Shown here piece after piece: positions 6,530 to 60,582 of a DNA stretch of 64,000 bases. The position numbers and the translations under genes were made by a program. Every line of letters begins with the position of its first letter. Within the stretch, counting starts at the first letter, position 1. The stretch is taken from the NCBI GenBank assembly GCA_034044135.1, contig CP139021.1, forward strand, positions 1,999,635-2,063,634, given 5' to 3'. Below the pieces are notes generated by a model. It made no database searches. It saw only the letters and a program-made list of their open reading frames with translations, and had not been told where the DNA came from. This stretch comes from Flammeovirgaceae bacterium SG7u.111. GTDB lineage: Bacteria; Bacteroidota; Bacteroidia; Cytophagales; Flammeovirgaceae.

Positions 6530-6551
6530 TTCCAAAACAGCTTCTTGGAAT

Positions 6552-6899: not shown

Positions 6900-7349
6900 A
6901 TTATTATAAGAATTTGCATTGTTACTTTGTTGTTGACATTGCTTGTAACATTTTTCCAGAATGAGAATAGAGATGGAAAAATTTTATGAAAAAATAAAAA
7001 CAACTTTCGCGTGCCTTTGGTTAGGTCAGTAATTGCTTTGTTAAAGGTGTGACTTCCTGTTCTGTTGCAAGATTGGCATTAGCTAATTTTAATGAAGTTC
7101 TATTCTACTATAAAAGTAAACCAGCATTTTTCTAACCAGCTCCGTTTTAATCAACATTGGTAAAACAGTTTTTATCAATACTTAGCTATGTATTACTATT
7201 CAACCTGCTGCAAAAGGGTTGAACATTACAATTGTGAGGGATTATTTCTACTGCTTTAATTGGAAAGAGTTGAGCTGAGCTCCCAAGGCCTCGGTGTGCC
7301 TAATCGTCTTGATTTAAGAATTATATAAATATTTGAACCATATATTCTC
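6900..7349. other. Spacer without a gene
   Basis: About 450 bases. The minus-strand frame of the GH5 remnant meets a TAA about 80 bases upstream of the recognisable part. A weak CAACC/GGGTTG-type hairpin near 7200-7225 is the only structure noted. The promoter for the genes at 7350 and 7434 should lie here, but no clear TAnnTTTG box was found. Confidence 0.4.
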
Positions 7350-7427
7350 ATGAAGAAAACGCTTCTGATTTTACTGGTAACATTTTTCTGCTTCAGTAGC
7401 GCTATTCATCAAACCTATAAAAACTGA
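7350..7427 (+). CDS. Signal-peptide-only mini-ORF (25 codons)
   Basis: ATG at 7350 to TGA at 7427 codes MKKTLLILLVTFFCF plus ten residues: a complete-looking signal peptide with almost no mature part. It ends 6 bases before the start of the next exported protein. It could be a leader peptide, a decayed signal sequence left by a deletion, or translationally coupled to 7434. Confidence 0.35.
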   Translation: MKKTLLILLVTFFCFSSAIHQTYKN

Positions 7428-7433
7428 AAAAGA

Positions 7434-7982
7434 ATGAAAGCACCTGTACTTCTTATGTTTTTTTTCTTCTTGGTAAGCACCCTGAGTTGGGGGCAAGAGT
7501 ATGAGACAGAACACGAAGAACTTGAAAGTGGGTTAAAACATCACAAAATCATGTTGGTTTTGGGGCATACTCATGTGCCTTCTGGAATAAATGTAGAGGG
7601 GAAAAAGACATGGTTGGCGCTAAGTAGTTGGGGGATAGATTACGACTATCGCATCAACCGACTATGGAGCGTAGGGCTTCACACCGACATGGTGCTGGAA
7701 AATTTTGAAATTGAAAATGAAAAAGAGGTCATAAAGGACAGAAGTCGCCCAATAGCTATGGCTCTTATGGCTTCCCGAAAATTGAATGGACACTTTTCTT
7801 TAATGGCCGGAGGTGGTGGCGAATATGCCAAGGAGGAAAGTTTCGCCTTGGTTCGGCTAGGCGCAGAATATAGCTTAGAATATAAAGAAGAATGGGAGTT
7901 TGGAGCTAGCTTGATGGCAGATTTTAAAATTGAAGGGTACAACTCTTGGGTAATAGGATTTGGGGTTGCCAAGCTATTTTGA
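7434..7982 (+). CDS. Small outer-membrane beta-barrel-like protein
   Basis: 182 residues with a signal peptide (1-20, ending LSWGQ). The mature part alternates polar and hydrophobic residues in short strands (LWSVGLHTDMVLENF, FSLMAGGGGEY, FALVRLGAEYSLEY) and ends in aromatic Phe (GVAKLF*), as outer-membrane barrels do. With this length an 8-strand barrel is plausible. The mature N-terminus is acidic and Glu-rich. It lies 88 bases upstream of a sulfatase on the same strand, perhaps one unit. The specific function is not recognisable. Confidence 0.7.
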   Translation: MKAPVLLMFFFFLVSTLSWGQEYETEHEELESGLKHHKIMLVLGHTHVPSGINVEGKKTWLALSSWGIDYDYRINRLWSVGLHTDMVLENFEIENEKEVIKDRSRPIAMALMASRKLNGHFSLMAGGGGEYAKEESFALVRLGAEYSLEYKEEWEFGASLMADFKIEGYNSWVIGFGVAKLF

Positions 7983-35055: not shown

Positions 35056-38000
35056 CTACTGTTTTAACACTTTTTTCAGAGAAGTTCCCTGATCAGAAAC
35101 GAGCTGGATGAGCAGCATACCGCTAGGCGCAGTAGAAAGATCGATGGTGATCAGTTCGCCTGCCTTTCCATCTTGTTCAAGAATCAGCTTACCAGTATAA
35201 TCAGTCACCCTGATCTTAAGGGTTTCCCCATTTCCTTGCGGGCTTTCTATATTGAGCAACCCGCTGGTTGGGTTGGGGTAAGCTTCATATGAATTGAATT
35301 CTGGTTGAAAAGTAGGGGCAAAGCCGCTAGCTATTCCAATAGAAGCTTTTCTGGCGAAGCTTCCTTTTGCCCAAACTTCCAAGCCACTGAGGGCAGCCTC
35401 TCCACCTTCGGTCTCAATGCTGATGCTGCCATCGGTTACATCTACATCCCAAGGTCCGAGCTTTCTCCATTCCTTGGCTTCCAAGCCGAAGTCATCTTCT
35501 ACTATCTTTCCATTCAGCTTAATATCGTATTGCTTGTTGCCTTCCCATTCCATCACGTACAAGTAGACCTGGTACTCGCCGTTCGGTACTTCGTTCATTT
35601 CTATTCCTGATCCTTCAGGTTCTTTAATGAGTGCCTTGCCAAGCATCGTGTTCTTGTTGGCTTCGGTAGGGGCATCGTTGAGAGGAATCCAGCCCATGTT
35701 ATAAGATCCACCATGGTTCACAAGGTCAGCTGAATAAGTTGCTTCCCAAGGATTGCCCTCAATAGTGAGTGCCTCACCGCCAAGGTTCACAGCTCGGTAA
35801 AGTTCGAGTTCTTCGGTTGGAGGTTCTGGTTCTTCCGATTTCTCCCATGTTGCGATGTTGCTATAGCTGGACTCCCCAGTGTTATTCCAAGCTTTCAGCC
35901 TAAAGGTAGCCACCGAGTCAGTAGGGGTGCTCATTATGTAGGAGATGAACCCTTCACCCAAGCTATCAAGTACCGTAAAATTCCCATACGTTTTGGATTC
36001 GAGTACAAAACCAAGCTCGTTATCCGAGTTGTCCGACCATGTTAACTCCAATTGGTCATCTATTTTGGTAACAACTAAGCCACTTGGTGCAGCAGGTGCT
36101 ACTTTTGGTTTAGCAGGAGTAAATATCCAAGCTGTATCACTAGTTTCCGATCTGTTTCCTGCTTCGTCTTTTGCGTAAACTTTGAAAATATATTCGCTTT
36201 CTTCGGAAAGGTCTGTCACATCGAACACGGTATCGGTTACCAATTCGCTGTTGAGCTTGGTACTTCCTTCAAAGACGTCGTATCCTGCAAGTGCAACGTC
36301 ATCTGTAGACGATTCCCAAATTAGTGTCAATGAATTGTAAGTGACATTTTTGGCTGAAAGATGCCTCGGTGTAGAAGGAGGCGTGGTATCTTTTGGAGCA
36401 GGAGTTCCTGTTCCTTTCCATACTTCCAAGCCGCAAATTGCCGCTTTTCCGCCCTCGGTCTCAATGCTGATCTTCCCATCGGTCACGTCCACTTCCCAAG
36501 GGCCGAGCTTTCTCCATTCCTTGGCTTCCAATCCAAAATCGTCCGCTACAACTTCTCCGTTCAGTTTTATGTCGTATTGCTTGTTGCCTTCCCATTCCAT
36601 CACATACAGGTACACCGAATAGGTGCCTTCTGGAATGTTGAGCATATCCATACCTGCACCCGAAGGGTCTTTTATCAGTGCCTTGCCCAGCATCGTATTT
36701 TTGTTGACCTCGGCAGGTGCATCGTTGAGTGGGATCCAGCTCATGTTGTACGAACTACCCCTTATAGCAAGGTTCGTGGCATAACCCGATTCAAAATCAA
36801 GCTCGTCGATGGTGAGTGCCTCGCCTGCAAGATTCACTGCTCGGTATAGCTCTAGCTCTTCCTCAACAGGTTGGTTCATTGCATCGTGAAGTGCTTGGAT
36901 CTCCTCTTCGTTTAGCTCTCTATCATAAACCCTCATTTCGTCCATCGCTCCATTGAAGTGGTAGCCATTTGGTACGTCCAATGTAGGTTCAAAACCAATA
37001 TAAGTATTAGCAAAACCAGGGTCAATTACATTTTCCATCAGACTATTTGACCCACTTAACACACCATTGATGTATACTTTTCCAGTGTTGTACCCATTTG
37101 AATTATAGTTAAAAGTATATGTAACCATATACCATGCGTCCAAACTTAAGGTTTGATTTCCCATAACCTGACTACTTTCATTCAGACCTTTAACCGTGAG
37201 CGCTGGGCGTCCCCACTGACCTGTAGCATTTCCTTTTCCTTCAATAGCAGGTGAAGAACCCTTGAAGGGAGTGCCATTAGCTCTGTTGGAAAGGATTACT
37301 GAGCCTGCTACCTCTGAATAGGCATTCAATTTCACCCAAACATTGATAGAGAAATCAGAACTATACCTTTTTAGGTCTGGGTGGTAGCCACAATCGATGT
37401 AGCTACTTGTTCCGTCAAACTGAGCTGCTCCACTAGCATTGCCCAACTTGTCTTCAGCGAAAGTGATGTTTGCAGGCGTACCATCTTGTTGGTTGGTAGA
37501 ATAATCTTTAGTATCTCCATCAAAAGGATAGTAAACTACTAAGCCACTTTCCAAATTAATTCCAGTTGGCTCTGTTTCTTCCCAATCAACTTCGTTGGAA
37601 TATTCAGATTCTCCGTGGTTGTTCCATGCTTTCACCCTAAAGGTAAACAGGGTATCGTTTGCTGGGCTTATGGCATGGTTGTAGGAAGACGTTCCTGCAG
37701 CCAAGCTATCGAGAAGTTCAAAGTTGCCATTGCTATTTTTTTCTATCACAAAGCCAAGCTCGTTGTCCGAGTTATCCGTCCAAGTGAAGTTGAGCTGCCC
37801 ATCTGTTTCAGCAACTGCTAATTCAGATGGAGCTGTAGGGACAGTTGGTAGTGGAGGTAACGTGCTGATAGTTAGAGTTCCACTAGTATCCGAAGAGTTG
37901 CCTGCCGAGTCTTTCGCCAATACAATGAACTTATATTCAGTATCGATCTCAAGGCTATCAATGAACAATTCTGTTTCGGTAATGAGTTCTTCGCCTAGTT

Positions 38001-41000
38001 TTTGCCCGTCTTGGTAAACTTCGTAACCAGCGAGAGCTGTTTCGTCCGCAGAGGCATCCCAAAGGAGCTTAAGCGAGGTCATGGCGATGTTTTCGGCTCG
38101 TAGATTTTCCGGAACAGTTGGAGGTATGGTATCGCCTGGTTCAGGAGTGTCGGCATTTCCAGACCAAACTTCCAGACCGCATAGCGCCGCTTTTCCGCCC
38201 TCGGTCTCAATGCTGATCTTTCCATCGGTTACCGCAACTTCCCAAGGGCCGAGCTTTTTCCATTCCTTGGCTTCCAGACCGAAGTCATCTTCTATTATCT
38301 CTCCATTAAGTTTTATGTCGTATTGCTTATTCCCTTCCCATTCCATCACATACAGGTACACCGAATAAGTGCCTTCTGGTACATTGAGCATATCTGCTCC
38401 AGCTCCATTTGGATCTTTGATAAGTGCTTTGCCCAACATGGCAAGTTTGTTGGCATCGGCAGGAGCGTCGTTCAGTGGCAGCCAGCTCATGTTGTAAGAG
38501 CTGCCCCGAATAGCTAAGTCAGCTGCATAGTTCGATTCCCAGTCATAACCATCAATTGTAAGCGCTTCACCGGCAAGGTTTACCGCTCGGTAGAATGCCA
38601 GTTCCTCGGCAACTTCCTGCACTTCCACAAACACCGTGTCGCTGAAGAGCGTAAGGTCAGGAACGTTTACGTTCGTCGCGCTGGCGTGGTACTCGCCCGA
38701 AAGCGACGGGTCAAACTCGGTAAAGAACAGTGTATCGGTAGAAGTAGTCGCCACCAACGAATCTCCCCTAAACCACTCGTACGTGCTCCCCGCAACATCC
38801 TTGTCTATGCCCCAAGTAATGAACTTGTCGCCTTCTCCACCGACCATCATCGAGTCTGACTGGAAGGGGATGGTTTTTTGTGCTTGGAGACCTGCTTTTA
38901 TGTTTAAATGAGAGTTTCGGGTAAAATCTTCAAAAGTAAAAAAGTTGCTCTTGATATATAATCTCATATGAATATCATCGAAATTATGAAAAATTGTCAG
39001 TTTTGGAAGGTGATGTAATTTATTGTTATAAACCTGAAAATATTTGATGTCCTTTAGTTTATTTAGGCTTTCAGGAACTTCCCCTTCAATGAAATTGTCG
39101 TTTAATAGAATTGTATTGATTTTCTTTAAATTGCCAATGTTGTTTGGTATCGAACCCGTTAAATGGTTTTTATTTAAGAATAGGTATTCTAGTGAATCTA
39201 AATAGGTAATTGAGTCAGGTATATTTCCATTCAATTGATTTGTGCTTAATTCAAGCCAATTCAATTTTTGAAGTTGTCCTATTGTTGATGGAATTTTTCC
39301 AGTCAATTCATTGTTATATAATTCTAATTTCTGCAGGTTAGAAAGTTTGCCAATTGAAGTAGGTATATTGCCCTCTAGCTTATTGTTTTCTGCTTCAAAT
39401 TTTACGAGATTAATTAAGTTGCCTATCGAGCTTGGTATTTTTCCACTGAGTTTGTTATTAAAAAGGTGTAAAATTTTTAACTTTTTTAAATTACCGAAGG
39501 ACTCAGGTATTGGACCTTCAAAGTCCGATACAAAAAGTCTGAGATCTTGGAGGTTAATCAGTTTACCATAACTTTCTGGGATAGAACCTGTAAATTTATT
39601 AGCTCCTATTTCTAAGGTTTCAAGATTGGTTAATTCTGAAATCCATTCTGGAAGATTGCCTTCAAAATTATTGAGGACGATATCAAGATGTTTTAGCTTT
39701 GACCAATTTCTCATTCCTTCTGGCAAGCTTCCATACAATTCATTGGATCTAACATTAAAAATTTCAATTTCTGATAAATATTGTATGGAGTTTGGTAGTA
39801 CTCCATATAAATTATTATATGCTGCACCTGAATTAATAAAGTCAACTCCTTTCACTCTGCCAGATGAGCTTGTGGATATCCCTAGCCAATTATCTATTGG
39901 GTTAGTACTTAACCAGTTATTGTTTTTTACCCATTCGTCCCCATTAGTAGCATGATAAAAGTCCACTAAAACTAGTGAGTCTAATTTTCTAGAATGCTCC
40001 AAAGGTTCAAATCTTATTTCCCATTGGAAGGCTTTGTCAGAAGCCCATTTGATTAGGAAAGTATCTTGAACATCAGTAAGGAGGCTGGATTCTGATTGTA
40101 AGCCATCAGAGTCATCGTTATATGCGATTAAGCTACTTTCGCAATCTTTGTATATTTCAAGTTCTGTATCCGCATCTGTATGGTATACAGAAGAAATAAC
40201 AAGGTTGCCCAATGAAGGTGCTACAAATTTGTAATAGACTAGGGTGTTTTCAGTTTGATATATTCCTTCGGGAATAAATTGAGCAGACTCACAATCTAGG
40301 CCTTTAACCTCTTCAACTTCCACAAACACCGTATCGCTGTAGAGCGTAAGGTCAGGTACATTCACGTTCGTAACGCTGGCATGGTACCCTCCCGAAAGCG
40401 ACGGGTCGAACTCGGTAAAGAACAGCGTATCGGTAGAAGTAGTCGCCACCAACGAATCTCCCCTAAACCACTCGTACGTACTCCCCGTAACATTCTTATC
40501 TATGCCCCAAGTGATAAACTGTTCGCCTTCGCCACCGACCATCATCGAGTCTGACTGGAAGGGGATGTTTTTTTGTGGGGAGATGCTGTAATCTAATAAG
40601 GTATTATCTTTATTTAAATTTAAAAGAATAGATGAAAACGTTAATTTGTTATTGTCAATATGAAATGTGGAATAATAACCTGATAGTTTTTCTACAATAT
40701 TTGGGAAGGTGGTAAAATTGTTTTTTTCGGCTTTAAAGTGATATATCGATGATGATTCAATGTTGGGAAAGCTACCTTCAAAATTATTATTATCTACAAA
40801 AATGTCGTATAAAGCTATTGAAGAGGATAAACTAGAAGGGAGTTTACCATAAAATTCATTGTTAGATAGATTAAGGTAAAATAAATGATAATTGTATGGT
40901 AAATAATAATCAGAGGTTCTAAAAAGACTGTCAGGAAGTTCTTGCCTGATTTCATTATTAGATAAATTTAGATAGTGAAGTTGACCAATAATAGGAAAAG

Positions 41001-44000
41001 CATCTTTTGATATACTTACCAATTTATTTTTACTTAAGTCTAAGTAACTTAAGTGTTTGAGTTTACTCAATTCAGCTGGAATGTCTCCATCAATATTGCA
41101 ATCGATTATCCCTAGTTGAGTTAGCTCATTAATTCTAGTAACAGATAATGGAAACTTAGTTCCAAGATTACATTGGTCGAAGGTAAGCCCAGTAATTGAA
41201 TATTCTAAAAAACGGTTTAGATCTTCCTCAAGAAGAATATAATTACCTAGTGAGAGGGTTTCAATATTAGTCAATTCTTTGACAAAGTCTGGAATGTATC
41301 TATGGGGCTCGTTTTGAGTTTTTAAAGCGGTTAGTGTTAGTCGCTTTATACCTTTTAAAAGATTCAGGTTGTAATCAAATTTAAATGTATCATTTATTTG
41401 ATATAGATATAGATATTCCAATTTGGATAGATGGATTATTTCTTCAGGTATCCCTTTGACTTTGCTTGTATTTCTGATATATAATGATCTTAGTTTACTT
41501 AATAAACCAATTGTTCGGGGTAATTGACCAGATAAGTTTAAATCATAAAGGGTTAAATATTGTACTCTTTCATCTCTTAATCCTATACCATTCCAGTAAT
41601 TCATTGACCTCAAAGAGTCCCACCTTTTAAAGCTCCAATTCTCCCCATTCAAATTATGGTACATATCAACCAATACCAACGAGTCCAACCTCCTAGAAGG
41701 CTCGATACTTTCGAAGCTTAAATTCCATTCAAAAGTGGAGCCTGCGTCCCATTTTATGAGGAAGGTGTCTTGTGCATAGGATAGCTCGCTTGCTTTGGAC
41801 TGCAAGCCCTCGGCATCGTCGCTAAAGGCGAGGAGGTCGCCACCGCATTGGAGGTAGATTTCCAAGTAGGTATCGGCATCGGTATGCCCCACGGAGGAAA
41901 CAGTGAGTTGTCCAGTAGAAGGGGCGATGAACTTGTAAAAAGAGGTGTCTAAACCGCTTTGGTGGATGCCCTCGGTTATAAATTGGGCAGACTCACAGTC
42001 TGAGCCTGAAACTTCCTGCACCTCCACAAATACCGTATCGCTATAGAGCGTAAGGTCAGGTACGTTTACGTTCGTAGCGCTGGCATGGTACGTACCCGAA
42101 AGTGACGGGTCGAACTCGGTAAAGAACAGCGTATCGGTAGAAGTAGTCGCCACCAACGAACCGCCCCTAAACCACTTGTAGGTACTCCCCGTAACATCCT
42201 TGTCTATGCCCCAAGTGATGAGCTTGTCGCCTTCTCTTCCAACTTTTAGTGAGTCTGATGAGAAAGGAATGCTTTTTTGGGGAGAGATGCTGAAGTCGTA
42301 TATGCCATCTTTAAAATTAAAATTTGGAATTAATGATGAAAAGGAAAGTCTATTGTTTTCTGCCTTGAATTGTTTAACAGAATAATCTTGAGCTGATTTG
42401 AAGATGTCGGCTATCAACGGAACTGAAGTAAACCTATTGTTGTGAACATCAAAACGGGTCATTTTATCTGATGATAATTGAGGGAAATCCCCTTCAAACT
42501 CATTGTTACCTAGTTTAAGAGTTTGTAAGTTGCTCCAGTCATTAATAAAATCAGGTATTTTACCAAAAAACTTGTTGTTTGATAAGTCTAATGATGTAAT
42601 ATTTTTTAAGTTTTTAAAACTAGAAGGGATTTCACCTTTGAGGTTATTATTGTTTAAGGATAGTGTTCTGAGTTTTTCTATCTTAAAAATTTCACTTGGT
42701 ATAGTATCTACAAGATTGTTGTATGAGAGATCGAGAAAGTAAAGCTCGGGTAGTAATGATAAAGAATTACTTTCAATGGTTGATACATTATTTTTATAAA
42801 GTGATAATCGCCCAAGGTTTGCTAGTTTATTTATGGATGCTGGTAAGGCTCCTGAAAAATTGTTGAATCCCAAGTCTAAAATTTGTAGGTTATTGAGGTT
42901 TGAAAGCTCATCGAGTATATCAAACGTAAGATTGTTGTGATCTGCATCAAAAAGCATCAGGTCATTAAGCTTTGACAAAGCTCCTGTTTCTATCCCATTA
43001 AACTCGTTTTCATAAATAAAAAGTTGTTCAAGTTTAGTTAGGTTATTTAATTCTTGGGGGATTTGTCCCTTTATTTCACAATTGGTAAGATATAAAATTT
43101 CTAATGTGTTTATTTTCGTTACTTGTTTTGGGAACATGTTGTTTAGGTTACAGCTCTTTATCCTTAAGTGACTTAAAGGGATATTAGAAATTCCATTCAA
43201 TTCATCATCATATATGGTTAAGTTGTTCAGAAATAATTGTTTAAGTGAGCTTAATTGATTGACAAAACTCGGAATATGAGAATTGCTGTTATAGAATGAA
43301 AGGGATAGATTCTTTAATTGGATTAAAGAATCTGGAAATAAAAAGTGTTCAGGAATGTTATTGATTTCAAGATTTGTTAATTTACTTAGATTTTTTGTTT
43401 GATTAGGTAGTTCATGTAAATGTTGAGCATATGAAATACGCAGATCTCTTAACTCTTCCAAGAAACCAATAGATCTTGATATTTTTCCGTATTCAAATGA
43501 TTCCCAAAGGTATAGACGATCAACCCTATCGTTAGTACCTAGGAAATATATACCTGCCCAAGAATCAATTGGTGTTGAAAAATCCCATTTATTATTATCT
43601 GGCCAATTTTCACCATCTAGTGCATAGTACATGTCAACCAAAACCAACGAATCCAGTCTCCTAGAAGGTTCGATAGATTCAAATCTAAGCTCCCAATCAA
43701 AAGGCTTATCAGATTGCCATTTGATAAGGAAAGTATCTTGTGCGTAGGATAATTGGCTAGCTTTGGACTGCAATCCTTCTGCATCGTCATTGTAAGCGAG
43801 TAGCTCACCACCGCACTGGAGGTAGATTTCTAAGTAAGTGTCGGCATCGGTATGCCCCACAGAAGAAACGGTGAGTTGCCCAGTTGAAGGGGCGATGAAC
43901 TTGTAGAAAGATGTTGTTGAATCACTTTGGTGGATGCCTTCGGTTATAAATGGATAGCTAGAGCAATCCAAACTATTTTGTGGAACGATTTGTATCTCCG

Positions 44001-45828
44001 TAGTTTCAAGGAAAAAATCAGGGACAGAATCGTGTTCTATCTGACAATAATATGTTCCAAACATATCAGGAGTCAGTTCTTTGATTTCTAATGTGTCGGA
44101 ATTTGTCGTTTGGAAAAAATTATTGTTTTTATACCAATTGTACTTCAGTCCTTCAACTTTGGACTCTTCTTTTAAACCTAATACTATTTCAAGAGGTTGG
44201 TTTTGAGTTCCCCATATAGTGTCATTTTTGATTTCAATTGATGCTTGGGGGTGTACTGAAAAGTTGATTATATGTTTAAGTGCTTGATTCGGGAAAATAG
44301 ATGAAAAGTCTAACTTGTTGTTTTTTAATTCAACTGTTCTATAATAGTGTTTTTTACTTCTATCGAAGCAATGAGTCAAATCAGGAATATTAGTAAATCT
44401 ATTTTGAGTTATGTTAAATATGTAAAGAGAGTCAATGTTATTTGCAAAACTATTTGGGAATTCGCCCTCAAAATCATTTTGCTTAAGATAGAGATCAGTT
44501 AAGTTTTTTAAATTACCTATTTCTTTAGGAATGCTTCCATAAAATGAATTTTGAGATAAATCTAACTCGTGTAGAGCAATAATATTACAAAGTTCGATAG
44601 GAAACACTTGGGTGAATTGATTGTCAGAAAGGTATAGAATATTGAGGTTAGAAAGTTCAGCAAGCACATTGATTCCCCCAGTTAAATTATTTTGGGATAA
44701 ATTAAGTGATTGAAGGTTTGTAAGTTGGTTAAATGTAGAAGGGATGTCTCCAGTGAATTTATTGGAATATAAATTTAGGCTTCTGAGATTTTTTAGAGTT
44801 CCTATTTCTTCTGGTAATGTTCCTTCAATATTTCCATTGGTAACTGATAGGCTTTCTAAATTTTTCAATTCGATGAGAGATATTGGAAACGTTTTATCTT
44901 CCCATTCTCCGTCTAAATAAATTGATGTTAAACTTTTAAGATTACCTATACTTGTAGGTAGAGAGTCTTCAAATTTAGAGGCTGAAATAGATAAAATTTT
45001 TAGTTGAGGTAAAGTAGTGATGCTAATCGGGAATTTAACCAAAGATTGATTATCGTATTCATAAAATATCCTAAGTTCTGAGAGTTGTTCAAGGGTTTCA
45101 AATGATTTGGGTAAAATAATATCTACATCTATATAGTCGAGATACATATTTCTCAAGCTGGATAGATAGTCTATTTCATATGGCAATCTCGTTACATTGT
45201 TTGAAGAAAATCCAAAAATGCTTAATTCATTTAAAAGCCCAATACTTCTCGGGATTTTACCATGTACATGGTTACCAGAAAAATAGAGTGAATATATTCT
45301 GTCATTTGAAATGTAATAAGGACCATCAGGCCAAGTATCAAAATTTTCAGCTAAATTCCATTGCTTCTCTTCAGGCCAATTCTCCCCATCTAAAGCATAA
45401 TACATATCCACCAACACCAGTGAATCCAACCTCCTAGAAGGCTCGATGCTTTCAAAACTTAGATTCCATACGAAAGCGGTATCTGCATCCCATTTGATGA
45501 GGAAGGTGTCTTGTGCGTAGGTGAGCTGGCTGGCTTTGGACTGCAAGCCCTCGGCATCGTCGCTAAAGGCTAGGAGGTCGCTACCGCATTGGAGGTAGAT
45601 CTCCAAGTAGGTGTCCGCATCGGTATGCCCTACGGAGGAAACGGTCAGTTGCCCAGTTGAAGGGGTGATGAATTTGTAGAAAGATGTTGTTGAATCGCTT
45701 TGATGGATGCCTTCTGTTATAAATTGGGCATTTTGGCAATCACTTCCGACTTGAGCGAATAGCAATTGGGTGGAGAAAAGTATGCCCAACAAGGACAGCA
45801 GGAGCTTTGGAGATAGAGTTCTCTTCAT
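35056..45828 (-). CDS. Giant modular T9SS-exported LRR/Ig/malectin/FN3/LamG protein
   Basis: 3590 residues. Signal peptide 1-26 (ends LLFAQ). Four modules follow (starts about 27, 620, 1275, 1844), each with a PPC-like beta-sandwich (FYKFIAPSTGQLTVSSVGH), then RLDSLVLVDMYYALDGENW, a long run of plant-like leucine-rich repeats (SLNLSQNNLTG type), and an Ig-like domain (TWGIDKDVTGSTYEWFRG). Then malectin-like domains at about 2408, 2986 and 3340 (YRAVNLAGEALTID), pairs of FN3 domains (about 2566, 2660, 3146, 3240), one LamG domain (about 2756-2980, VVYYPFDGDTKDYS), and a T9SS type A tail (about 3511-3590, AYPNPTSGLLNIES). Probably a surface adhesin or glycan binder. LRR parts are very AT-rich, repeated domains GC-rich. 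Confidence 0.93.
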   Translation of the reverse strand: MKRTLSPKLLLSLLGILFSTQLLFAQVGSDCQNAQFITEGIHQSDSTTSFYKFITPSTGQLTVSSVGHTDADTYLEIYLQCGSDLLAFSDDAEGLQSKASQLTYAQDTFLIKWDADTAFVWNLSFESIEPSRRLDSLVLVDMYYALDGENWPEEKQWNLAENFDTWPDGPYYISNDRIYSLYFSGNHVHGKIPRSIGLLNELSIFGFSSNNVTRLPYEIDYLSSLRNMYLDYIDVDIILPKSFETLEQLSELRIFYEYDNQSLVKFPISITTLPQLKILSISASKFEDSLPTSIGNLKSLTSIYLDGEWEDKTFPISLIELKNLESLSVTNGNIEGTLPEEIGTLKNLRSLNLYSNKFTGDIPSTFNQLTNLQSLNLSQNNLTGGINVLAELSNLNILYLSDNQFTQVFPIELCNIIALHELDLSQNSFYGSIPKEIGNLKNLTDLYLKQNDFEGEFPNSFANNIDSLYIFNITQNRFTNIPDLTHCFDRSKKHYYRTVELKNNKLDFSSIFPNQALKHIINFSVHPQASIEIKNDTIWGTQNQPLEIVLGLKEESKVEGLKYNWYKNNNFFQTTNSDTLEIKELTPDMFGTYYCQIEHDSVPDFFLETTEIQIVPQNSLDCSSYPFITEGIHQSDSTTSFYKFIAPSTGQLTVSSVGHTDADTYLEIYLQCGGELLAYNDDAEGLQSKASQLSYAQDTFLIKWQSDKPFDWELRFESIEPSRRLDSLVLVDMYYALDGENWPDNNKWDFSTPIDSWAGIYFLGTNDRVDRLYLWESFEYGKISRSIGFLEELRDLRISYAQHLHELPNQTKNLSKLTNLEINNIPEHFLFPDSLIQLKNLSLSFYNSNSHIPSFVNQLSSLKQLFLNNLTIYDDELNGISNIPLSHLRIKSCNLNNMFPKQVTKINTLEILYLTNCEIKGQIPQELNNLTKLEQLFIYENEFNGIETGALSKLNDLMLFDADHNNLTFDILDELSNLNNLQILDLGFNNFSGALPASINKLANLGRLSLYKNNVSTIESNSLSLLPELYFLDLSYNNLVDTIPSEIFKIEKLRTLSLNNNNLKGEIPSSFKNLKNITSLDLSNNKFFGKIPDFINDWSNLQTLKLGNNEFEGDFPQLSSDKMTRFDVHNNRFTSVPLIADIFKSAQDYSVKQFKAENNRLSFSSLIPNFNFKDGIYDFSISPQKSIPFSSDSLKVGREGDKLITWGIDKDVTGSTYKWFRGGSLVATTSTDTLFFTEFDPSLSGTYHASATNVNVPDLTLYSDTVFVEVQEVSGSDCESAQFITEGIHQSGLDTSFYKFIAPSTGQLTVSSVGHTDADTYLEIYLQCGGDLLAFSDDAEGLQSKASELSYAQDTFLIKWDAGSTFEWNLSFESIEPSRRLDSLVLVDMYHNLNGENWSFKRWDSLRSMNYWNGIGLRDERVQYLTLYDLNLSGQLPRTIGLLSKLRSLYIRNTSKVKGIPEEIIHLSKLEYLYLYQINDTFKFDYNLNLLKGIKRLTLTALKTQNEPHRYIPDFVKELTNIETLSLGNYILLEEDLNRFLEYSITGLTFDQCNLGTKFPLSVTRINELTQLGIIDCNIDGDIPAELSKLKHLSYLDLSKNKLVSISKDAFPIIGQLHYLNLSNNEIRQELPDSLFRTSDYYLPYNYHLFYLNLSNNEFYGKLPSSLSSSIALYDIFVDNNNFEGSFPNIESSSIYHFKAEKNNFTTFPNIVEKLSGYYSTFHIDNNKLTFSSILLNLNKDNTLLDYSISPQKNIPFQSDSMMVGGEGEQFITWGIDKNVTGSTYEWFRGDSLVATTSTDTLFFTEFDPSLSGGYHASVTNVNVPDLTLYSDTVFVEVEEVKGLDCESAQFIPEGIYQTENTLVYYKFVAPSLGNLVISSVYHTDADTELEIYKDCESSLIAYNDDSDGLQSESSLLTDVQDTFLIKWASDKAFQWEIRFEPLEHSRKLDSLVLVDFYHATNGDEWVKNNNWLSTNPIDNWLGISTSSSGRVKGVDFINSGAAYNNLYGVLPNSIQYLSEIEIFNVRSNELYGSLPEGMRNWSKLKHLDIVLNNFEGNLPEWISELTNLETLEIGANKFTGSIPESYGKLINLQDLRLFVSDFEGPIPESFGNLKKLKILHLFNNKLSGKIPSSIGNLINLVKFEAENNKLEGNIPTSIGKLSNLQKLELYNNELTGKIPSTIGQLQKLNWLELSTNQLNGNIPDSITYLDSLEYLFLNKNHLTGSIPNNIGNLKKINTILLNDNFIEGEVPESLNKLKDIKYFQVYNNKLHHLPKLTIFHNFDDIHMRLYIKSNFFTFEDFTRNSHLNIKAGLQAQKTIPFQSDSMMVGGEGDKFITWGIDKDVAGSTYEWFRGDSLVATTSTDTLFFTEFDPSLSGEYHASATNVNVPDLTLFSDTVFVEVQEVAEELAFYRAVNLAGEALTIDGYDWESNYAADLAIRGSSYNMSWLPLNDAPADANKLAMLGKALIKDPNGAGADMLNVPEGTYSVYLYVMEWEGNKQYDIKLNGEIIEDDFGLEAKEWKKLGPWEVAVTDGKISIETEGGKAALCGLEVWSGNADTPEPGDTIPPTVPENLRAENIAMTSLKLLWDASADETALAGYEVYQDGQKLGEELITETELFIDSLEIDTEYKFIVLAKDSAGNSSDTSGTLTISTLPPLPTVPTAPSELAVAETDGQLNFTWTDNSDNELGFVIEKNSNGNFELLDSLAAGTSSYNHAISPANDTLFTFRVKAWNNHGESEYSNEVDWEETEPTGINLESGLVVYYPFDGDTKDYSTNQQDGTPANITFAEDKLGNASGAAQFDGTSSYIDCGYHPDLKRYSSDFSINVWVKLNAYSEVAGSVILSNRANGTPFKGSSPAIEGKGNATGQWGRPALTVKGLNESSQVMGNQTLSLDAWYMVTYTFNYNSNGYNTGKVYINGVLSGSNSLMENVIDPGFANTYIGFEPTLDVPNGYHFNGAMDEMRVYDRELNEEEIQALHDAMNQPVEEELELYRAVNLAGEALTIDELDFESGYATNLAIRGSSYNMSWIPLNDAPAEVNKNTMLGKALIKDPSGAGMDMLNIPEGTYSVYLYVMEWEGNKQYDIKLNGEVVADDFGLEAKEWRKLGPWEVDVTDGKISIETEGGKAAICGLEVWKGTGTPAPKDTTPPSTPRHLSAKNVTYNSLTLIWESSTDDVALAGYDVFEGSTKLNSELVTDTVFDVTDLSEESEYIFKVYAKDEAGNRSETSDTAWIFTPAKPKVAPAAPSGLVVTKIDDQLELTWSDNSDNELGFVLESKTYGNFTVLDSLGEGFISYIMSTPTDSVATFRLKAWNNTGESSYSNIATWEKSEEPEPPTEELELYRAVNLGGEALTIEGNPWEATYSADLVNHGGSYNMGWIPLNDAPTEANKNTMLGKALIKEPEGSGIEMNEVPNGEYQVYLYVMEWEGNKQYDIKLNGKIVEDDFGLEAKEWRKLGPWDVDVTDGSISIETEGGEAALSGLEVWAKGSFARKASIGIASGFAPTFQPEFNSYEAYPNPTSGLLNIESPQGNGETLKIRVTDYTGKLILEQDGKAGELITIDLSTAPSGMLLIQLVSDQGTSLKKVLKQ
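35340..35810 (-). repeat. Intragenic repeat: malectin-like domain, copy 3 of 3
   Basis: Near-identical at DNA level to 36400-36870 (copy 2) and 38150-38605 (copy 1), including the stretch around AAGGTCCGAGCTTTCTCC or its close variant. Candidate for recombination between copies. Confidence 0.8.
40300..40560 (-). repeat. Intragenic repeat: Ig-like domain of module 3
   Basis: Closely matches 38620-38870 (module 4) and 42010-42250 (module 2) at DNA level. The module 1 version (43985-44230) is quite different. G+C of 40381-40440 is 32 of 60. Confidence 0.8.
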
Positions 45829-54957: not shown

Positions 54958-55773
54958 CTACCCAAAAGAAATCGAATATTGTTTTCCATAATTTTGTAGG
55001 ATGTACAAGGTGGCCTCTATGAGAGATTGCATGGATGCATAGTGCCTTGGCCTGATCCAATAATGCTTGAGCATCTTCCACAAGATCTCTATCAGGTTGA
55101 GTTCGGGACAGTATGCAGGGATAAACTGTAGGTACAGGCCTTTTTTCTTCCATTTTCCCATAGCTTCCCCTACCTCTTTGGATCTATGTATCGCTGCGTT
55201 GTCCAAGACCAGTACGGTCTTCTTCGTGATCGTCTCGGAGAAACTGTCCAGTACCTGTATGACACATGCCGAGTTTGCCGCGCCATGGTAATAGCTCCCC
55301 GTGAAGGTGTTGGCCAACGGGTCGAGTATGCCCAAGACGGAGACCCCGTTGCCCCGCCGGGCGGGCAGCTTGTTTGCCGTGCCAACGGGCTGCCACGCAT
55401 ACGGAACGTTCGGGCACAGGCTTATCCCCGTCTCGTCAAAATAACACAGGTCGATCTCCCCTTGCCGGGCCTGCTGTCCCAGACAGTCGAGTTCTTGTTG
55501 GAAGAAACGGAACATCTCTTCGTCACGGTTGTTTTCCAGGGAGTTGCGCATGCGCTTCCAGACAAGACCCGACTTTTTCAATATCCGCTTGACGGTCTTC
55601 CCACAGGCGTCCTTGCCGAACTTGGTGGAGACCTCTTGGGCAAAAAAACGGAGACAGGTGACAGGCCCTTCCCGGGCAAGGGATGCTATTTTTTTTGCTC
55701 TTCCACCGTATAGATACTCGGCCGCCCACTCTTGGGGGCATCCATCAATCCTGCCGCCTTTGAGGATTCCCAT
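54958..55773 (-). CDS. IS630 transposase, catalytic part (frame B)
   Basis: A 271-residue open frame, of which the part after the A8 run (IASLAREGPVTC onward, about 240 residues) is the real domain. The DDE triad is visible: LCYFDETGIS, VLVLDNAAIHRS and CPELNLIEILWKMLKHY. It ends YSISFG. It is expected to be made only as a fusion with frame A by -1 frameshifting. The listed ATG is only the limit of the open frame and is not a likely start. Confidence 0.9.
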   Translation of the reverse strand: MGILKGGRIDGCPQEWAAEYLYGGRAKKIASLAREGPVTCLRFFAQEVSTKFGKDACGKTVKRILKKSGLVWKRMRNSLENNRDEEMFRFFQQELDCLGQQARQGEIDLCYFDETGISLCPNVPYAWQPVGTANKLPARRGNGVSVLGILDPLANTFTGSYYHGAANSACVIQVLDSFSETITKKTVLVLDNAAIHRSKEVGEAMGKWKKKGLYLQFIPAYCPELNLIEILWKMLKHYWIRPRHYASMQSLIEATLYILQNYGKQYSISFG

Positions 55774-56013: not shown

Positions 56014-59000
56014 TTAATTACCGCATGGGCTTAGTGGCGCTAAACACTCGACTTTCCCGTTGACTGTAAGACCTGCGTTATTGGCCTCATGGGAGCCTTC
56101 TTTGGTTAACATTACAGTGCCATACACATCTAGCCTAGCGCTAGAGCTAATGATAAGTGTTGAGGTAGCTTCAGAAATATCAAAGATATTGACCCCAGAA
56201 CAAAGCCTTGTGTCAGAGATGGTAACTTGAAAGCCCTTTACATTTACTTTGGTGTTTTTATCTGGTACTATATTGCCTGCACTTCCTCCTTCAGTGATTG
56301 ACCAAGTAGAAGGGTCATTCCAATCTCCATTTGCAATTGCCCAGAGTTCATTTGTGCTTCCTGAGTGTACCCCAATATCAAATGTAGTTATATTCGATTC
56401 ACCATAAGTATCCGTCACAACTACTTCTACTTGTTCATAAGTGCCTTGATCTTCTGTAGTTGGCGTAAGAACTAGCTCAATAAGACCGTTTTCTATATGA
56501 TTTAAGGTTGCAAAAGTTGGTAAATTTGTAGCAGTGAAAGTTAATTTTTCGTTCAGTTTTGCAATTACCTCATTAAAGATATAGGCATGTCCAATTTCAA
56601 CTAAATGAATCCCATCAGTAGCAGCATATCGAGCTTTAATCGTGAAATCATTGCTTTCATCAGCTAATTCATCATAAATATCAATTATTTGAGTTCCAAA
56701 ATTATCCCTGAATAGCTGAGCTTGGTTTTTGAGCTCATTTCTTTTATCGGTATCTCCTGCACTGAAGTTTCTGGGTTGGGTAGTAGTAATATAAAATAGG
56801 GCGCCACTAGTTTTAGCAATATTTTTGACAGTAGTTAAGTTTTGTATAGTAATACTAGCAGGGATATTTGCTGCTACATCATTTGTAGGCATATTTACAA
56901 TAATGATATCAGGGTTTAGTGTAAGTGCCTTATCAATATTAATATCGCCATCCCCACTTGGTAGTATGACATCCGAAGTAATACCACCACGAGCTAAGTT
57001 TATTACCTCACCAGTACCTGATTGTGTTACATAACTTTCTAATTTTCCAACCCATGCATTTGCATAATTACTTAGACCATGCCCTTCTGCTGTAGAAGAG
57101 CCTAACACTACTATTTTTTTATTGGTCCAATCTGGGCTGCCTCCATTTAGAAAATCTACACCATCTAAATCATTTGCAGTAATATTAATAGTCGAAGAAG
57201 TATTAATTGGTGCACATACAAAGTTTAATTGACTGATTTCAGGAGGATTATTTGGCGATATTTCCACGACTCCGTTCTCCTCTATGACGAGGGAGTTGAT
57301 GTATGCGAACGAGGAGGCTGCGTCCTTGACGACCTGTATGGTGACCTCCCCGTTTGCGTCGGGCAGTACGCCGGAAATGCGTGCGACTTCGCCCGTGTTG
57401 TTGACCGCGTCCAGGCTCACGGTCTGCGCCCCGATAGTGTAGTGGGTGAGGCGCTGCCCGGAGACCCCCGCCCTGCTGGCGAAGAACTCGAAGCTGTACG
57501 TCCTGGTAATGTCCAGCCCGCTCACCTTTAAGTGTTTGGCAGTCATGTCGTTCTCGAAGTAGAAGCTCCTCGTCACCTCGGGGGGGTATACCCCGGAGGC
57601 TGCGCCCGTGTTCCCCTCCAGGTCCCATGTGTCGAGTAGCTCGATGCCTATCCCGCTGCTCGCCCCTGTGTGGTCGAGCATGTCTGGGATGGAGTTGCCC
57701 GCGGTGGGTGCGCCGGTGACGTTGTTCCAGGGCGCCGGCGCGAGTGCGACCCCGTCCGCGCCGCCGTGGAAGTTCACGTGGATCACACGCAGCCCTCCCT
57801 TTGTAATGGTGTATACTACAGTGCTAAACTCGGAGTGCCCCGCCCCCTTGACGGCCCTGACCTTGTAGTAGTAGGTGGTGCCCTCCTCCAGTCCGGTGTC
57901 CGCGTAGGCGAGCTCGGAAGCGCCGGTGGTCCCCACCAGTGCGTACCCCCCCGCCAGCTCGAGGGACCTGTGGACCTCGAACCCGGTGGCCCCGGCGTGG
58001 TCGTAGGCCCATGCGATCTCTGCGGTGGCCTCCGAGTCGCCGTGCGCGGTGACGCTTGTGGGCGCGTCCACGACTCCGTTCTCCTCTATGACGAGGGAGT
58101 TGATGTATGCGAACGAGGAGGCTGCGTCCTTGACGACCTGTATGGTGACCTCCCCGTTTGCGTCGGGCAGTACGCCGGAAATGCGTGCGACTTCGCCCGT
58201 GTTGTTGACCGCGTCCAGGCTCACGGTCTGCGCCCCGATAGTGTAGTGGGTGAGGCGCTGCCCGGAGACCCCCGCCCTGCTGGCGAAGAACTCGAAGCTG
58301 TACGTCCTGGTAATGTCCAGCCCGCTGACCTTCAGCCGCTTGGTGGCCATGTCGTTCTCGAAGTAGAAGCTCCTCGTCACCTCGGGGGGGTATACCCCGG
58401 AGGCTGCGCCCGTGTTCCCCTCCAGGTCCCATGTGTCGAGTAGCTCGATGCCTATCCCGCTGCTCGCCCCTGTGTGGTCGAGCATGTCTGGGATGGAGTT
58501 GCCCGCGGTGGGTGCGCCGGTGACGTTGTTCCAGGGCGCCGGCGCGAGTGCGACCCCGTCCGCGCCGCCGTGGAAGTTCACGTGGATCACACGCAGCCCT
58601 CCCTTTGTAATGGTGTATACTACAGTGCTAAACTCGGAGTGCCCCGCCCCCTTGACGGCCCTGACCTTGTAGTAGTAGGTGGTGCCCTCCTCCAGTCCGG
58701 TGTCCGCGTAGGCGAGCTCGGAAGCGCCGGTGGTCCCCACCAGTGCGTACCCCCCCGCCAGCTCGAGGGACCTGTGGACCTCGAACCCGGTGGCCCCGGC
58801 GTGGTCGTAGGCCCATGCGATCTCTGCGGTGGCCTCCGAGTCGCCGTGCGCGGTGACGCTTGTGGGCGCGTCCACGACTCCGTTCTCCTCTATGACGAGG
58901 GAGTTGATGTATGCGAACGAGGAGGCTGCGTCCTTGACGACCTGTATGGTGACCTCCCCGTTTGCGTCGGGCAGTACGCCGGAAATGCGTGCGACTTCGC

Positions 59001-60582
59001 CCGTGTTGTTGACCGCGTCCAGGCTCACGGTCTGCGCCCCGATAGTGTAGTGGGTGAGGCGCTGCCCGGAGACCCCCGCCCTGCTGGCGAAGAACTCGAA
59101 GCTGTACGTCCTGGTAATGTCCAGCCCGCTGACCTTCAGCCGCTTGGTGGCCATGTCGTTCTCGAAGTAGAAGCTCCTCGTCACCTCGGGGGGGTATACC
59201 CCGGAGGCTGCGCCCGTGTTCCCCTCCAGGTCCCATGTGTCGAGTAGCTCGATGCCTATCCCGCTGCTCGCCCCTGTGTGGTCGAGCATGTCTGGGATGG
59301 AGTTGCCCGCGGTGGGTGCGCCGGTGACGTTGTTCCAGGGCGCCGGCGCGAGTGCGACCCCGTCCGCGCCGCCGTGGAAGTTCACGTGGATCACACGCAG
59401 CCCTCCCTTTGTAATGGTGTATACTACAGTGCTAAACTCGGAGTGCCCCGCCCCCTTGACGGCCCTGACCTTGTAGTAGTAGGTGGTGCCCTCCTCCAGT
59501 CCGGTGTCCGCGTAGGCGAGCTCGGAAGCGCCGGTGGTCCCCACCAGTGCGTACCCCCCCGCCAGCTCGAGGGACCTGTGGACCTCGAACCCGGTGGCCC
59601 CGGCGTGGTCGTAGGCCCATGCGATCTCTGCGGTGGCCTCCGAGTCGCCGTGCGCGGTGACGCTTGTGGGCGCGTCCACGACTCCGTTCTCCTCTATGAC
59701 GAGGGAGTTGATGTATGCGAACGAGGAGGCTGCGTCCTTGACGACCTGTATGGTGACCTCCCCGTTTGCGTCGGGCAGTACGCCGGAAATGCGTGCGACT
59801 TCGCCCGTGTTGTTGACCGCGTCCAGGCTCACGGTCTGCGCCCCGATAGTGTAGTGGGTGAGGCGCTGCCCGGAGACCCCCGCCCTGCTGGCGAAGAACT
59901 CGAAGCTGTACGTCCTGGTAATGTCCAGCCCGCTGACCTTCAGCCGCTTGGTGGCCATGTCGTTCTCGAAGTAGAAGCTCCTCGTCACCTCGGGGGGGTA
60001 TACCCCGGAGGCTGCGCCCGTGTTCCCCTCCAGGTCCCATGTGTCGAGTAGCTCGATGCCTATCCCGCTGCTCGCCCCTGTGTGGTCGAGCATGTCTGGG
60101 ATGGAGTTGCCCGCGGTGGGTGCGCCGGTGACGTTGTTCCAGGGCGCCGGCGCGAGTGCGACCCCGTCCGCGCCGCCGTGGAAGTTCACGTGGACGCTAC
60201 GGACTACTTCCTCTATAGAATTAGAGGTTGAGGGCTCGTTATAACTATTGAACGAAGGGATGAATGATGGATAATTTACCTTGTCTATAATATCAACTTC
60301 ATCATCAATAGTTGGATTAAATTCTTCGATAGTTTTAACGTCCGAATGAACTAAAGCAATTAACGAGTTAATATAGAAAGATTGCTCCATATCCTTAGAG
60401 GATGGAATTCCACTGGAAGTCACATGGTTTTCATACCCAATTTGATAGTATTGGTATTCCTTTTGTGTGGTTTTCAGAGTATTTGTTTTGTAGCCGAAGG
60501 GCGTATTAAGGTTGTGGTTTTTGGCTTGAGATCCAATTGCTAAACCAATGAGCCAACATAGCAACAAAGTAGTTTTTTTCAT
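56014..60582 (-). CDS. Giant SGNH-hydrolase protein with an 804-bp tandem domain array
   Basis: 1522 residues. Signal peptide 1-20 (ends GSQA). A unique N-terminal region reaches about 128, then three full copies of a 268-residue unit (about 130-933) and a fourth lacking the second half (934-1106). Each unit is a beta-rich carbohydrate-binding-like domain (VHVNFHGGADGVALAPAPW) plus an FN3 domain (TAEIAWAYDHAGATGFEVHR). Then an SGNH/GDSL hydrolase (about 1150-1345): VVLGSSTAEGHG, NLARGGITSD, IIVNMPTNDVA, DGIHLVEIGH. A cadherin-like domain and a C-terminal segment LWAIANGDWNDPSTW follow. No T9SS tail is present; the stop lies on the IS630 edge. Probably an exported glycan esterase. Confidence 0.9.
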   Translation of the reverse strand: MKKTTLLLCWLIGLAIGSQAKNHNLNTPFGYKTNTLKTTQKEYQYYQIGYENHVTSSGIPSSKDMEQSFYINSLIALVHSDVKTIEEFNPTIDDEVDIIDKVNYPSFIPSFNSYNEPSTSNSIEEVVRSVHVNFHGGADGVALAPAPWNNVTGAPTAGNSIPDMLDHTGASSGIGIELLDTWDLEGNTGAASGVYPPEVTRSFYFENDMATKRLKVSGLDITRTYSFEFFASRAGVSGQRLTHYTIGAQTVSLDAVNNTGEVARISGVLPDANGEVTIQVVKDAASSFAYINSLVIEENGVVDAPTSVTAHGDSEATAEIAWAYDHAGATGFEVHRSLELAGGYALVGTTGASELAYADTGLEEGTTYYYKVRAVKGAGHSEFSTVVYTITKGGLRVIHVNFHGGADGVALAPAPWNNVTGAPTAGNSIPDMLDHTGASSGIGIELLDTWDLEGNTGAASGVYPPEVTRSFYFENDMATKRLKVSGLDITRTYSFEFFASRAGVSGQRLTHYTIGAQTVSLDAVNNTGEVARISGVLPDANGEVTIQVVKDAASSFAYINSLVIEENGVVDAPTSVTAHGDSEATAEIAWAYDHAGATGFEVHRSLELAGGYALVGTTGASELAYADTGLEEGTTYYYKVRAVKGAGHSEFSTVVYTITKGGLRVIHVNFHGGADGVALAPAPWNNVTGAPTAGNSIPDMLDHTGASSGIGIELLDTWDLEGNTGAASGVYPPEVTRSFYFENDMATKRLKVSGLDITRTYSFEFFASRAGVSGQRLTHYTIGAQTVSLDAVNNTGEVARISGVLPDANGEVTIQVVKDAASSFAYINSLVIEENGVVDAPTSVTAHGDSEATAEIAWAYDHAGATGFEVHRSLELAGGYALVGTTGASELAYADTGLEEGTTYYYKVRAVKGAGHSEFSTVVYTITKGGLRVIHVNFHGGADGVALAPAPWNNVTGAPTAGNSIPDMLDHTGASSGIGIELLDTWDLEGNTGAASGVYPPEVTRSFYFENDMTAKHLKVSGLDITRTYSFEFFASRAGVSGQRLTHYTIGAQTVSLDAVNNTGEVARISGVLPDANGEVTIQVVKDAASSFAYINSLVIEENGVVEISPNNPPEISQLNFVCAPINTSSTINITANDLDGVDFLNGGSPDWTNKKIVVLGSSTAEGHGLSNYANAWVGKLESYVTQSGTGEVINLARGGITSDVILPSGDGDINIDKALTLNPDIIIVNMPTNDVAANIPASITIQNLTTVKNIAKTSGALFYITTTQPRNFSAGDTDKRNELKNQAQLFRDNFGTQIIDIYDELADESNDFTIKARYAATDGIHLVEIGHAYIFNEVIAKLNEKLTFTATNLPTFATLNHIENGLIELVLTPTTEDQGTYEQVEVVVTDTYGESNITTFDIGVHSGSTNELWAIANGDWNDPSTWSITEGGSAGNIVPDKNTKVNVKGFQVTISDTRLCSGVNIFDISEATSTLIISSSARLDVYGTVMLTKEGSHEANNAGLTVNGKVECLAPLSPCGN
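57265..60194 (-). repeat. 804-bp tandem repeat array (3.6 copies), GC-rich
   Basis: The landmark GTGGAAGTTCACGTGGA recurs at about 60177, 59373, 58569 and 57765, always 804 bases apart. The copies appear identical by eye, except for a patch at 57521-57547 in the last one. 58681-58740 is 44 of 60 G+C, against 19 of 60 at 56821-56880 in the same gene. The last copy (57265-57783) has no FN3 half. Confidence 0.95.

What the first reader, a model, noticed from the sequence alone, without database searches (positions are those of the whole stretch)
57265..60194. Tandem array of 804-bp units, apparently identical, in an SGNH-hydrolase gene
Three complete units (binding-like domain + FN3) and one partial unit recur at an exact 804-base period and look identical by eye, while the surrounding gene is AT-rich. 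Identity at this length implies very recent duplication or continuing homogenisation. Copy number probably varies by unequal recombination, changing how far the hydrolase stands from the surface or how many glycan-binding domains it has.
Basis: partly seen in the sequence, partly recalled or inferred. Interest (0 to 1): 0.7.

Follow-up and report, generated by a model that had tools for sequence, protein, structure and literature searches.

The report
GC-rich identical repeats in AT-rich gene
A bacterial gene for a predicted hydrolase holds near-identical copies of a two-domain unit that are strikingly rich in G and C although the rest of the gene is rich in A and T, and a second case in the same genome suggests that the copying process itself, rather than import of foreign DNA, may drive the change.

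Summary
The array is real: 57263-60194 on the minus strand of a 1,522-aa gene, three full 804-bp units plus a 520-bp partial one. Copies are identical except for nine differences within 21 bp of the last copy. The pattern recurs on the second contig. Two paralogous genes, whose domains are distantly homologous to the unit, share an exactly identical 1.1-kb tract with GC3 0.82 between diverged AT-rich flanks. Its orthologue in a relative is AT-rich, with protein identity (75%) close to the flanks (76-80%), yet silent differences run 166:10 towards GC. There, GC enrichment probably arose in place, together with homogenisation. Best explanation: recurrent GC-biased gene conversion between copies. 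For the window array this rests on analogy; no orthologue was found. Import of a GC-rich module followed by amplification is the main rival. The wider association of repeat identity with GC is significant in a small sample but has clear exceptions. Copy-number variation could not be tested.

The parts
56014..60582 (-). host gene, 1,522 aa: N-terminal part, repeat array, SGNH/GDSL-like hydrolase, C-terminal part without a detected T9SS sorting tail
   Evidence: ORF; Pfam
57263..60194 (-). tandem array, period 804 bp, 3.65 copies; GC 65%, GC3 0.87
59391..60194 (-). copy 1 (complete)
58587..59390 (-). copy 2 (complete)
57783..58586 (-). copy 3 (complete)
57263..57782 (-). copy 4 (partial, first domain only)
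57523..57543 (-). patch in copy 4 with nine differences; six are A/T where the other copies have G/C, one the reverse, two neutral
   Evidence: no other place in the genome within 3 mismatches of the patch
56584..57108 (-). SGNH/GDSL-like hydrolase domain (PF13472, aa 1159-1333)
   Evidence: 48.1 bits against cut-off 32.9
35056..45828 (-). 3,590-aa leucine-rich-repeat gene in the same window, a graded version of the pattern (GC3 rises with identity between its repeats)

Best explanation
The array is a homogenised tandem repeat. Copies are kept identical by recombination between them (unequal exchange and gene conversion), and the heteroduplex repair in that process favours G/C over A/T. Over many rounds silent sites in the converting tract drift to about 87% GC, and amino-acid-changing sites also shift towards GC, while the adjoining single-copy parts of the gene stay AT-rich because divergence stops the recombination tracts there. 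Shown: the repeat identity, the GC step and their shared borders. Supported by comparison for the second-contig case: a type-B-like tract now sits, exactly identical, in both paralogues, and its collinear orthologues in two relatives are AT-rich. Inferred: that the same process made the window array, that conversion is recurrent, and that the bias lies in mismatch repair.
For: Maximum-likelihood GC3 steps against identity borders, in codons: window gene 129-1106 against 130-1107; contig-2 gene B 533-890 against 534-899; gene A 1303-1662 against 1306-1671; the four orthologous A and B genes of two relatives have no comparable step (lnLR 7-10 against 167-288). Of 175 ORFs of 700 aa or more, the four strongest GC-rich segments lie on repeated tracts: two on intragenic repeats, two on the tract shared by the C2 paralogues. 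The island protein is 74% identical to the same position of gene B of relative G003 but 51% to gene A. G000 gene B against G003 gene B: silent changes GC-ward:AT-ward 166:10 in the island, 32:12 and 21:27 in the 200 aa on either side; codon positions 1 and 2 of changed residues 66:17 in the island. The island position has GC3 0.12-0.25 in the four genes of the relatives, 0.81 here. At fourfold sites A>C, A>G, T>C, T>G are 19, 21, 10, 19, so not a one-class mutator. The two islands prefer different GC-ending codons for Thr (ACC:ACG 16:4 against 3:25, p 6e-6) and Val (p 0.007), though not clearly for six other amino acids tested. Pooled intragenic repeats of 29 ORFs (13 own, 16 relatives): at DNA identity 0.9 or more 6 of 7 have raised GC3 (mean +0.21), below that 9 of 22 (mean 0.00), Mann-Whitney p 0.001.
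Against: No orthologue of the window gene and no close relative of its unit was found, so in-place GC enrichment is not shown for the array itself. Repeat identity without GC gain exists: in the ORFs at 1429566, 4311062 and C2 25329 the windows of 90% identity or more are no GC-richer than the rest, within 0.01; a gene of relative G070 at 92% shows none; by the HSP method GC3 was raised in 4 of 5 ORFs at 90-97% and 3 of 4 at 97% or more, not in all; several repeat pairs have GC like their flanks. GC-rich segments without intragenic repeats exist (1429566, 5319931). A second A/B tract at C2:3043-3243, about 88% identical, has ordinary GC. Between different ORFs, windows at 90-97% identity show hardly any rise (0.434 against 0.413). 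Repeat tracts end near domain borders, as a module swap would also give. The two islands carry distantly homologous domains (36% aa), so they are not fully independent cases. At the patch 6 of 14 aligned relatives have R, as in the GC-rich version, and none the H of copy 4, so the AT-rich patch need not be ancestral.
Confidence: 0.5

Rival explanations
1. A GC-rich module came in by horizontal transfer from a high-GC organism, replaced or joined the AT-rich gene and was then recently amplified in tandem; identity reflects youth, GC reflects the donor.
For: Sharp borders near domain edges. Transposase genes here are GC-richer: the IS630 gene has GC3 0.65 and a 260-aa IS4/5-type transposase 0.69. 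The SGNH part has no match in 17 other family genomes.
Against: No donor found: outside the array, no match of the unit over 44% identity among those listed for 390 genomes of the order, 395 of the phylum, or the GTDB contig scan, save a 36-residue FN3 piece at 50%; that scan finds close relatives only. For the contig-2 island the nearest relatives are the collinear AT-rich genes of the same family, and a donor would have had to reach the same tract of both genes. The two islands differ in Thr and Val codon preference.
Confidence: 0.28
2. Reverse causality: GC-rich stretches recombine more readily (more stable heteroduplex), so sequences that happened to be GC-rich became homogenised.
For: Would also give the association of identity with GC3.
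Against: The contig-2 island is AT-rich and unhomogenised in both relatives, so GC-richness was probably not the starting state. It does not explain why that segment differs 166:10 towards GC.
Confidence: 0.1
3. Selection on codon usage, mRNA structure or protein composition of these domains raised GC, with homogenisation incidental.
For: Changes at first and second codon positions are also GC-ward.
Against: The step occurs inside single reading frames at the identity border. Homologous domains next to the island and in relatives stay AT-rich. The two islands differ in Thr and Val codons.
Confidence: 0.05
4. Assembly artefact: collapsed or chimeric repeat.
For: Identical repeats are hard to assemble; no reads were available.
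Against: The reading frame is kept through 3.65 copies, the genome is in two contigs, and a GC island recurs in two other genes. Copy number could still be wrong.
Confidence: 0.05

Closest known systems
GC-biased gene conversion in bacteria (Lassalle et al. 2015, PMC4450053; abstract and found passages seen)
   Same: Higher GC where there is evidence of recombination, argued to be independent of selection on codon usage.
   Different: That work compares genes by evidence of intragenic recombination; the find call gave no occurrence of 'paralog' or 'duplicat' in its main text. Here it would be ectopic, between copies in one genome, with a step inside single genes from GC3 about 0.26 to 0.87.
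Primate X-chromosome palindromes (Jackson et al. 2021, PMC8981503; abstract seen)
   Same: Arms kept over 99% identical by gene conversion have higher GC than flanking single-copy sequence, with GC-ward replacements.
   Different: Primate chromosome palindromes; here bacterial coding sequence with a step inside a gene.
Tetrahymena group III LRR genes with 90-bp exon arrays (PMC6564038; passages seen)
   Same: The young LRR group has higher GC than the other LRR groups and different leucine codon preference; [quoted passage not shown]
   Different: Eukaryote; the passages seen do not attribute the GC to biased conversion.
Concerted evolution in bacteria (tuf, nifH, rRNA operons; passages of PMC8223754)
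   Same: Tract-wise homogenisation of copies within one genome.
   Different: No GC step was described in the passages seen.

Membership tests
GC-biased gene conversion | GC enrichment confined to the recombining tract | tested here: met
   Borders agree to 1-9 codons in three genes.
GC-biased gene conversion | A/T-to-G/C substitution excess against an orthologue, at silent and other sites | tested here: met
   Contig-2 island 166:10 silent and 66:17 at positions 1+2, pairwise and unpolarised by an outgroup; not testable for the window array (no orthologue found).
GC-biased gene conversion | GC-neutral changes not raised | tested here: inconclusive
   Island 23 among about 265 conserved codons; flanks 21 of about 160 and 28 of about 152, but fourfold sites outside the island are identical at only 146 of 295, near saturation.
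GC-biased gene conversion | Effect grows with recombination, here identity between copies | tested here: inconclusive
   Pooled trend p 0.001 over 29 ORFs and inside the LRR gene, with clear exceptions.
GC-biased gene conversion | Biased repair of heteroduplex in the cell | not testable with these tools
   Needs experiment.
Horizontally acquired module | Nearest relative in a GC-rich genome outside the family | tested here: not met
   none found in what was searched.
SGNH/GDSL hydrolase | Profile match above cut-off | tested here: met
   PF13472, 48.1 bits against 32.9; activity and catalytic residues not tested.
Fibronectin type III domain | Profile match above cut-off | tested here: met
   PF00041, 78.2 bits for the gene, 35.5 for one unit, cut-off 25.
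Malectin/carbohydrate-binding domain (first domain of the unit) | Profile match | tested here: not met
   No malectin or CBM family matched any of 15 homologues in Pfam at E 0.01; profile comparison with a stretch covering the malectin-like match of the window's LRR gene, 10% probability.
Type 9 secretion substrate | C-terminal sorting domain PF18962 | tested here: not met
   None in the window gene, although the contig-2 gene A has it.

The most novel reading that the evidence does not exclude
Ectopic gene conversion in this bacterium is GC-biased strongly enough to rewrite the codon usage of coding tracts it keeps homogenised, producing sharp intragenic GC islands (GC3 about 0.27 to above 0.8). 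Such islands would then mark ongoing intragenomic conversion in bacterial genomes and give a natural measure of the bias.
Probability: 0.45. Interest if true: 0.82.

Novelty: new variant of a known kind. Interest (0 to 1): 0.62.

Why it matters
[quoted passage not shown] their paper was not held). Comparisons between genes or species confound selection, transfer and recombination. A gene whose composition changes abruptly at the border of its homogenised repeat, inside one reading frame, together with a second case that has AT-rich orthologues, offers an internal control that helps to separate these causes and can be put to direct test.

Tried and rejected
Malectin or glycan-binding label for the first domain: not supported. 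AlphaFold of a single unit: mean pLDDT 37, not used further. I first took the high-GC3 single genes for highly expressed genes; five that I scanned are two transposases, an SSB, one with a sub-threshold replication-initiator match and one without a match, so that idea was dropped. Donor for the patch in copy 4: none within 3 mismatches. Orthologues of the SGNH part and of a second GC-raised gene (3271435) for another in-place test: none usable. The blastp version of the identity test lost all intragenic hits and only informs on paralogues. The first intragenic table included ORFs with masked letters and gave no significant excess (11 of 17, p 0.21); one search replaced it, leaving out 3 such ORFs of 965 and using slightly different thresholds; alone it is also not significant over its 13 ORFs (8 positive, p 0.11; identity correlation p 0.08, without the window gene p 0.24). 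The 16 relatives alone: 8 of 16 positive, p 0.78, identity correlation p 0.009. A single tblastn of the unit against plasmids found one record, an FN3 piece. Papers on GC steps in bacterial repeats: searches; no listed title describes it.

Full report
OBSERVATION. The window lies in a 7.72-Mb genome held as two contigs: C1, 7,664,104 bp, and C2, 53,590 bp. The gene at 56014-60582 (minus) encodes 1,522 aa with three FN3 stretches and a GDSL/SGNH-like hydrolase domain. Between 57263 and 60194 it carries an 804-bp period repeated 3.65 times. A base-by-base comparison at lag 804 shows no difference from 57544 to 59390 and nine differences before that, all between 57523 and 57543. The patch, in the last copy, is the AT-richer version: six positions have A/T where the other copies have G/C, one the reverse, two are neutral. 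The unit matches nowhere else in the genome at DNA level.

The array is 65% GC with GC3 0.87; the parts of the gene before and behind it are 36% and 37% GC, with GC3 0.26. A maximum-likelihood search for the single best GC3 segment in the gene returns codons 129-1106; the repeat runs from codon 130 to 1107. Composition and repetition change at the same place at both ends. In 2.11 Mb of this genome (27%), among 1,326 ORFs of at least 150 aa, the three highest 60-codon GC3 windows are this gene (0.97) and two genes on contig C2 (0.93 each); the ORF mean is 0.42, sd 0.08. The next ranks include mobile-element genes: the five that I scanned are two transposases, an SSB, a weak replication-initiator match and one unknown.

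A SECOND, INFORMATIVE CASE. The two C2 genes are paralogues: type A, 2,234 aa, and type B, split by the contig ends into 1,451 and 846 aa, which continue in frame across the ends, so C2 is probably circular. Their domains are distantly homologous to the unit (36-44% aa) but give no DNA-level match to it. A and B share an exact 1,098-bp match; on either side they are mostly well below 90% identical and about 40% GC. GC3 in this tract is 0.82 against 0.28-0.30 outside, and the GC3 borders (533-890 in B, 1303-1662 in A) are the identity borders (534-899, 1306-1671) within 9 codons. Two relatives of the same family, G003 and G011, have both genes; there the island position has GC 33-42% and GC3 0.12-0.25 and A and B are diverged. 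The island protein is 74% identical to the same position of G003 gene B but 51% to G003 gene A. So a B-like tract now sits in both genes of this genome. Between the two B genes, protein identity in the island (0.75) is close to that of the flanks (0.80 and 0.76), as expected for vertical descent, yet silent differences run 166:10 towards GC, against 32:12 and 21:27 in the 200 residues on either side; changed residues show 66:17 at codon positions 1 and 2. At fourfold sites transversions towards G/C are as common as transitions (38 and 31), unlike a deaminase. This makes it likely that the GC enrichment happened in this lineage, on an inherited segment, and exactly where two copies became identical. 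Silent sites are near saturation, so the argument rests on protein identity, gene order and the two AT-rich relatives.

HOW GENERAL. Of 175 ORFs of at least 700 aa, ranked by strength of a GC-rich segment, the first four are the window gene, the two C2 genes and a 1,774-aa gene at 1270234, where 96% of codons inside the segment and 4% outside lie in intragenic repeats; a partly matching gene at 1259616 (72% against 6%) is sixth, the LRR gene of the window (32% against 23%, no clear match) eighth and the gene at 3271435 (98% against 2%) eleventh. Fifth and seventh are exceptions: segments without intragenic repeats. For intragenic repeats in 962 own ORFs of at least 250 aa without masked letters, 13 qualified. 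The four with mean DNA identity of 0.9 or more have GC3 differences of +0.59, +0.18, +0.18 and +0.31; of the nine below, four are positive, with mean 0.01. Over all 13 the excess is not significant (p 0.11). Sixteen qualifying ORFs among 206 in regions of other genomes, chosen for domain or FN3 hits and not for GC (one of them, G020:C6, had prompted the test), are 8 of 16 positive (p 0.78) but give rank correlation 0.63 (p 0.009) between identity and GC3 difference; differences there are small, at most +0.11. Pooled: 6 of 7 against 9 of 22 positive, p 0.001, and p 0.003 without the window gene. By a different method, best-HSP identity, raised GC3 was seen in 28 of 47 ORF entries at 60-75%, 19 of 37 at 75-90%, 4 of 5 at 90-97% and 3 of 4 at 97% or more, mean differences 0.01, 0.04, 0.14 and 0.16. 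In the LRR gene at 35056-45828 of the same window GC3 climbs from about 0.3 where copies are below 60% identical to 0.63-0.65 where they are above 85%; these windows are not independent. Windows matched between different ORFs rise only at 97% identity or more (0.625 over 97 windows of 13 non-IS ORFs, background 0.413) and not at 90-97%; the C2 pair supplies much of the top class.

MECHANISM. The simplest account is recurrent gene conversion and unequal exchange with a G/C preference in repairing mismatches. Homogenisation and GC gain then share borders because tracts stop where homology ends. Silent sites respond most and replacement sites less. The two islands use different GC-ending codons for Thr (ACC:ACG 16:4 in the window unit, 3:25 in the C2 island) and Val (GTC:GTG 15:6 against 6:17), while the six other amino acids tested do not differ at p < 0.05; this speaks, within limits, against one translational optimum and against one common donor. 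Shown: the tract structure and the substitution asymmetry of the C2 island. Inferred: recurrence, the repair step, and the transfer of this account to the window array, for which no orthologue was found in 17 other family genomes (SGNH part) and no unit relative above 44% identity apart from a 36-residue FN3 piece.

RIVALS. Import of a GC-rich module followed by amplification remains open for the window array. It is weak for C2, where the nearest sequences are AT-rich, collinear and in the same family, and where a foreign piece would have to reach the same tract in two genes. Reverse causality (GC-rich DNA converts more) is not excluded in general but does not explain the directional change in C2. 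Selection does not readily explain a step inside one reading frame at the repeat border. Misassembly could affect copy number but hardly the GC island.

FUNCTION OF THE PROTEIN. From the domains, a secreted or surface hydrolase with repeated modules is likely (inference). No sorting tail was found in this gene, and an IS630-type transposase gene lies just downstream (54958-55773).

NOVELTY. GC-biased conversion in bacteria has been proposed and disputed (PMC4450053 and PMC8153448 abstracts; PMC6867656 passage). Similar signatures are described for primate palindromes (PMC8981503 abstract), and Tetrahymena LRR arrays combine raised GC with proposed ectopic recombination (PMC6564038 passages). 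No title listed by the searches describes step-like intragenic GC islands on homogenised bacterial repeats; subscription papers are largely missing from that library. I rate it a new variant of a known kind, with confidence 0.5.

Noticed in passing
window 35056-45828 (-): 3,590-aa protein with leucine-rich repeats, laminin-G, FN3 and a T9SS tail whose more identical repeats have higher GC3 (graded pattern).
   Followed up: partly
window 54958-55773 (-): IS630-family transposase, GC-richer than its surroundings, just downstream of the SGNH gene, which lacks a detectable T9SS tail; a truncation is possible but not shown.
   Followed up: partly
L033-L035 (contig C2, 53,590 bp): Probably a circular plasmid: one reading frame continues across the ends. 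It carries the A/B surface genes among genes that look like polysaccharide-synthesis genes (by eye, not scanned). Contigs G003:C30 (50.5 kb) and G011:C129 (62.2 kb) carry the same gene pair with the two genes in opposite orientation.
   Followed up: partly
G000 C1 1254196, 2221167 and five other places in the sampled blocks: A 260-aa IS4/5-type transposase in seven near-identical copies with GC3 0.69, well above the ORF mean of 0.42; import, or the same bias in multi-copy DNA.
   Followed up: partly
L074 about 6431-7587 (G020:C6): Tandem 291-bp repeat, 93-96% identical, with GC3 0.59 in repeats against 0.50 elsewhere, in a genome of another family of the order.
   Followed up: partly
G000 C1 1429566-1434563: A 1,666-aa gene with a strong GC-rich segment outside its repeats and AT-rich repeats: the clearest exception.
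   Followed up: no
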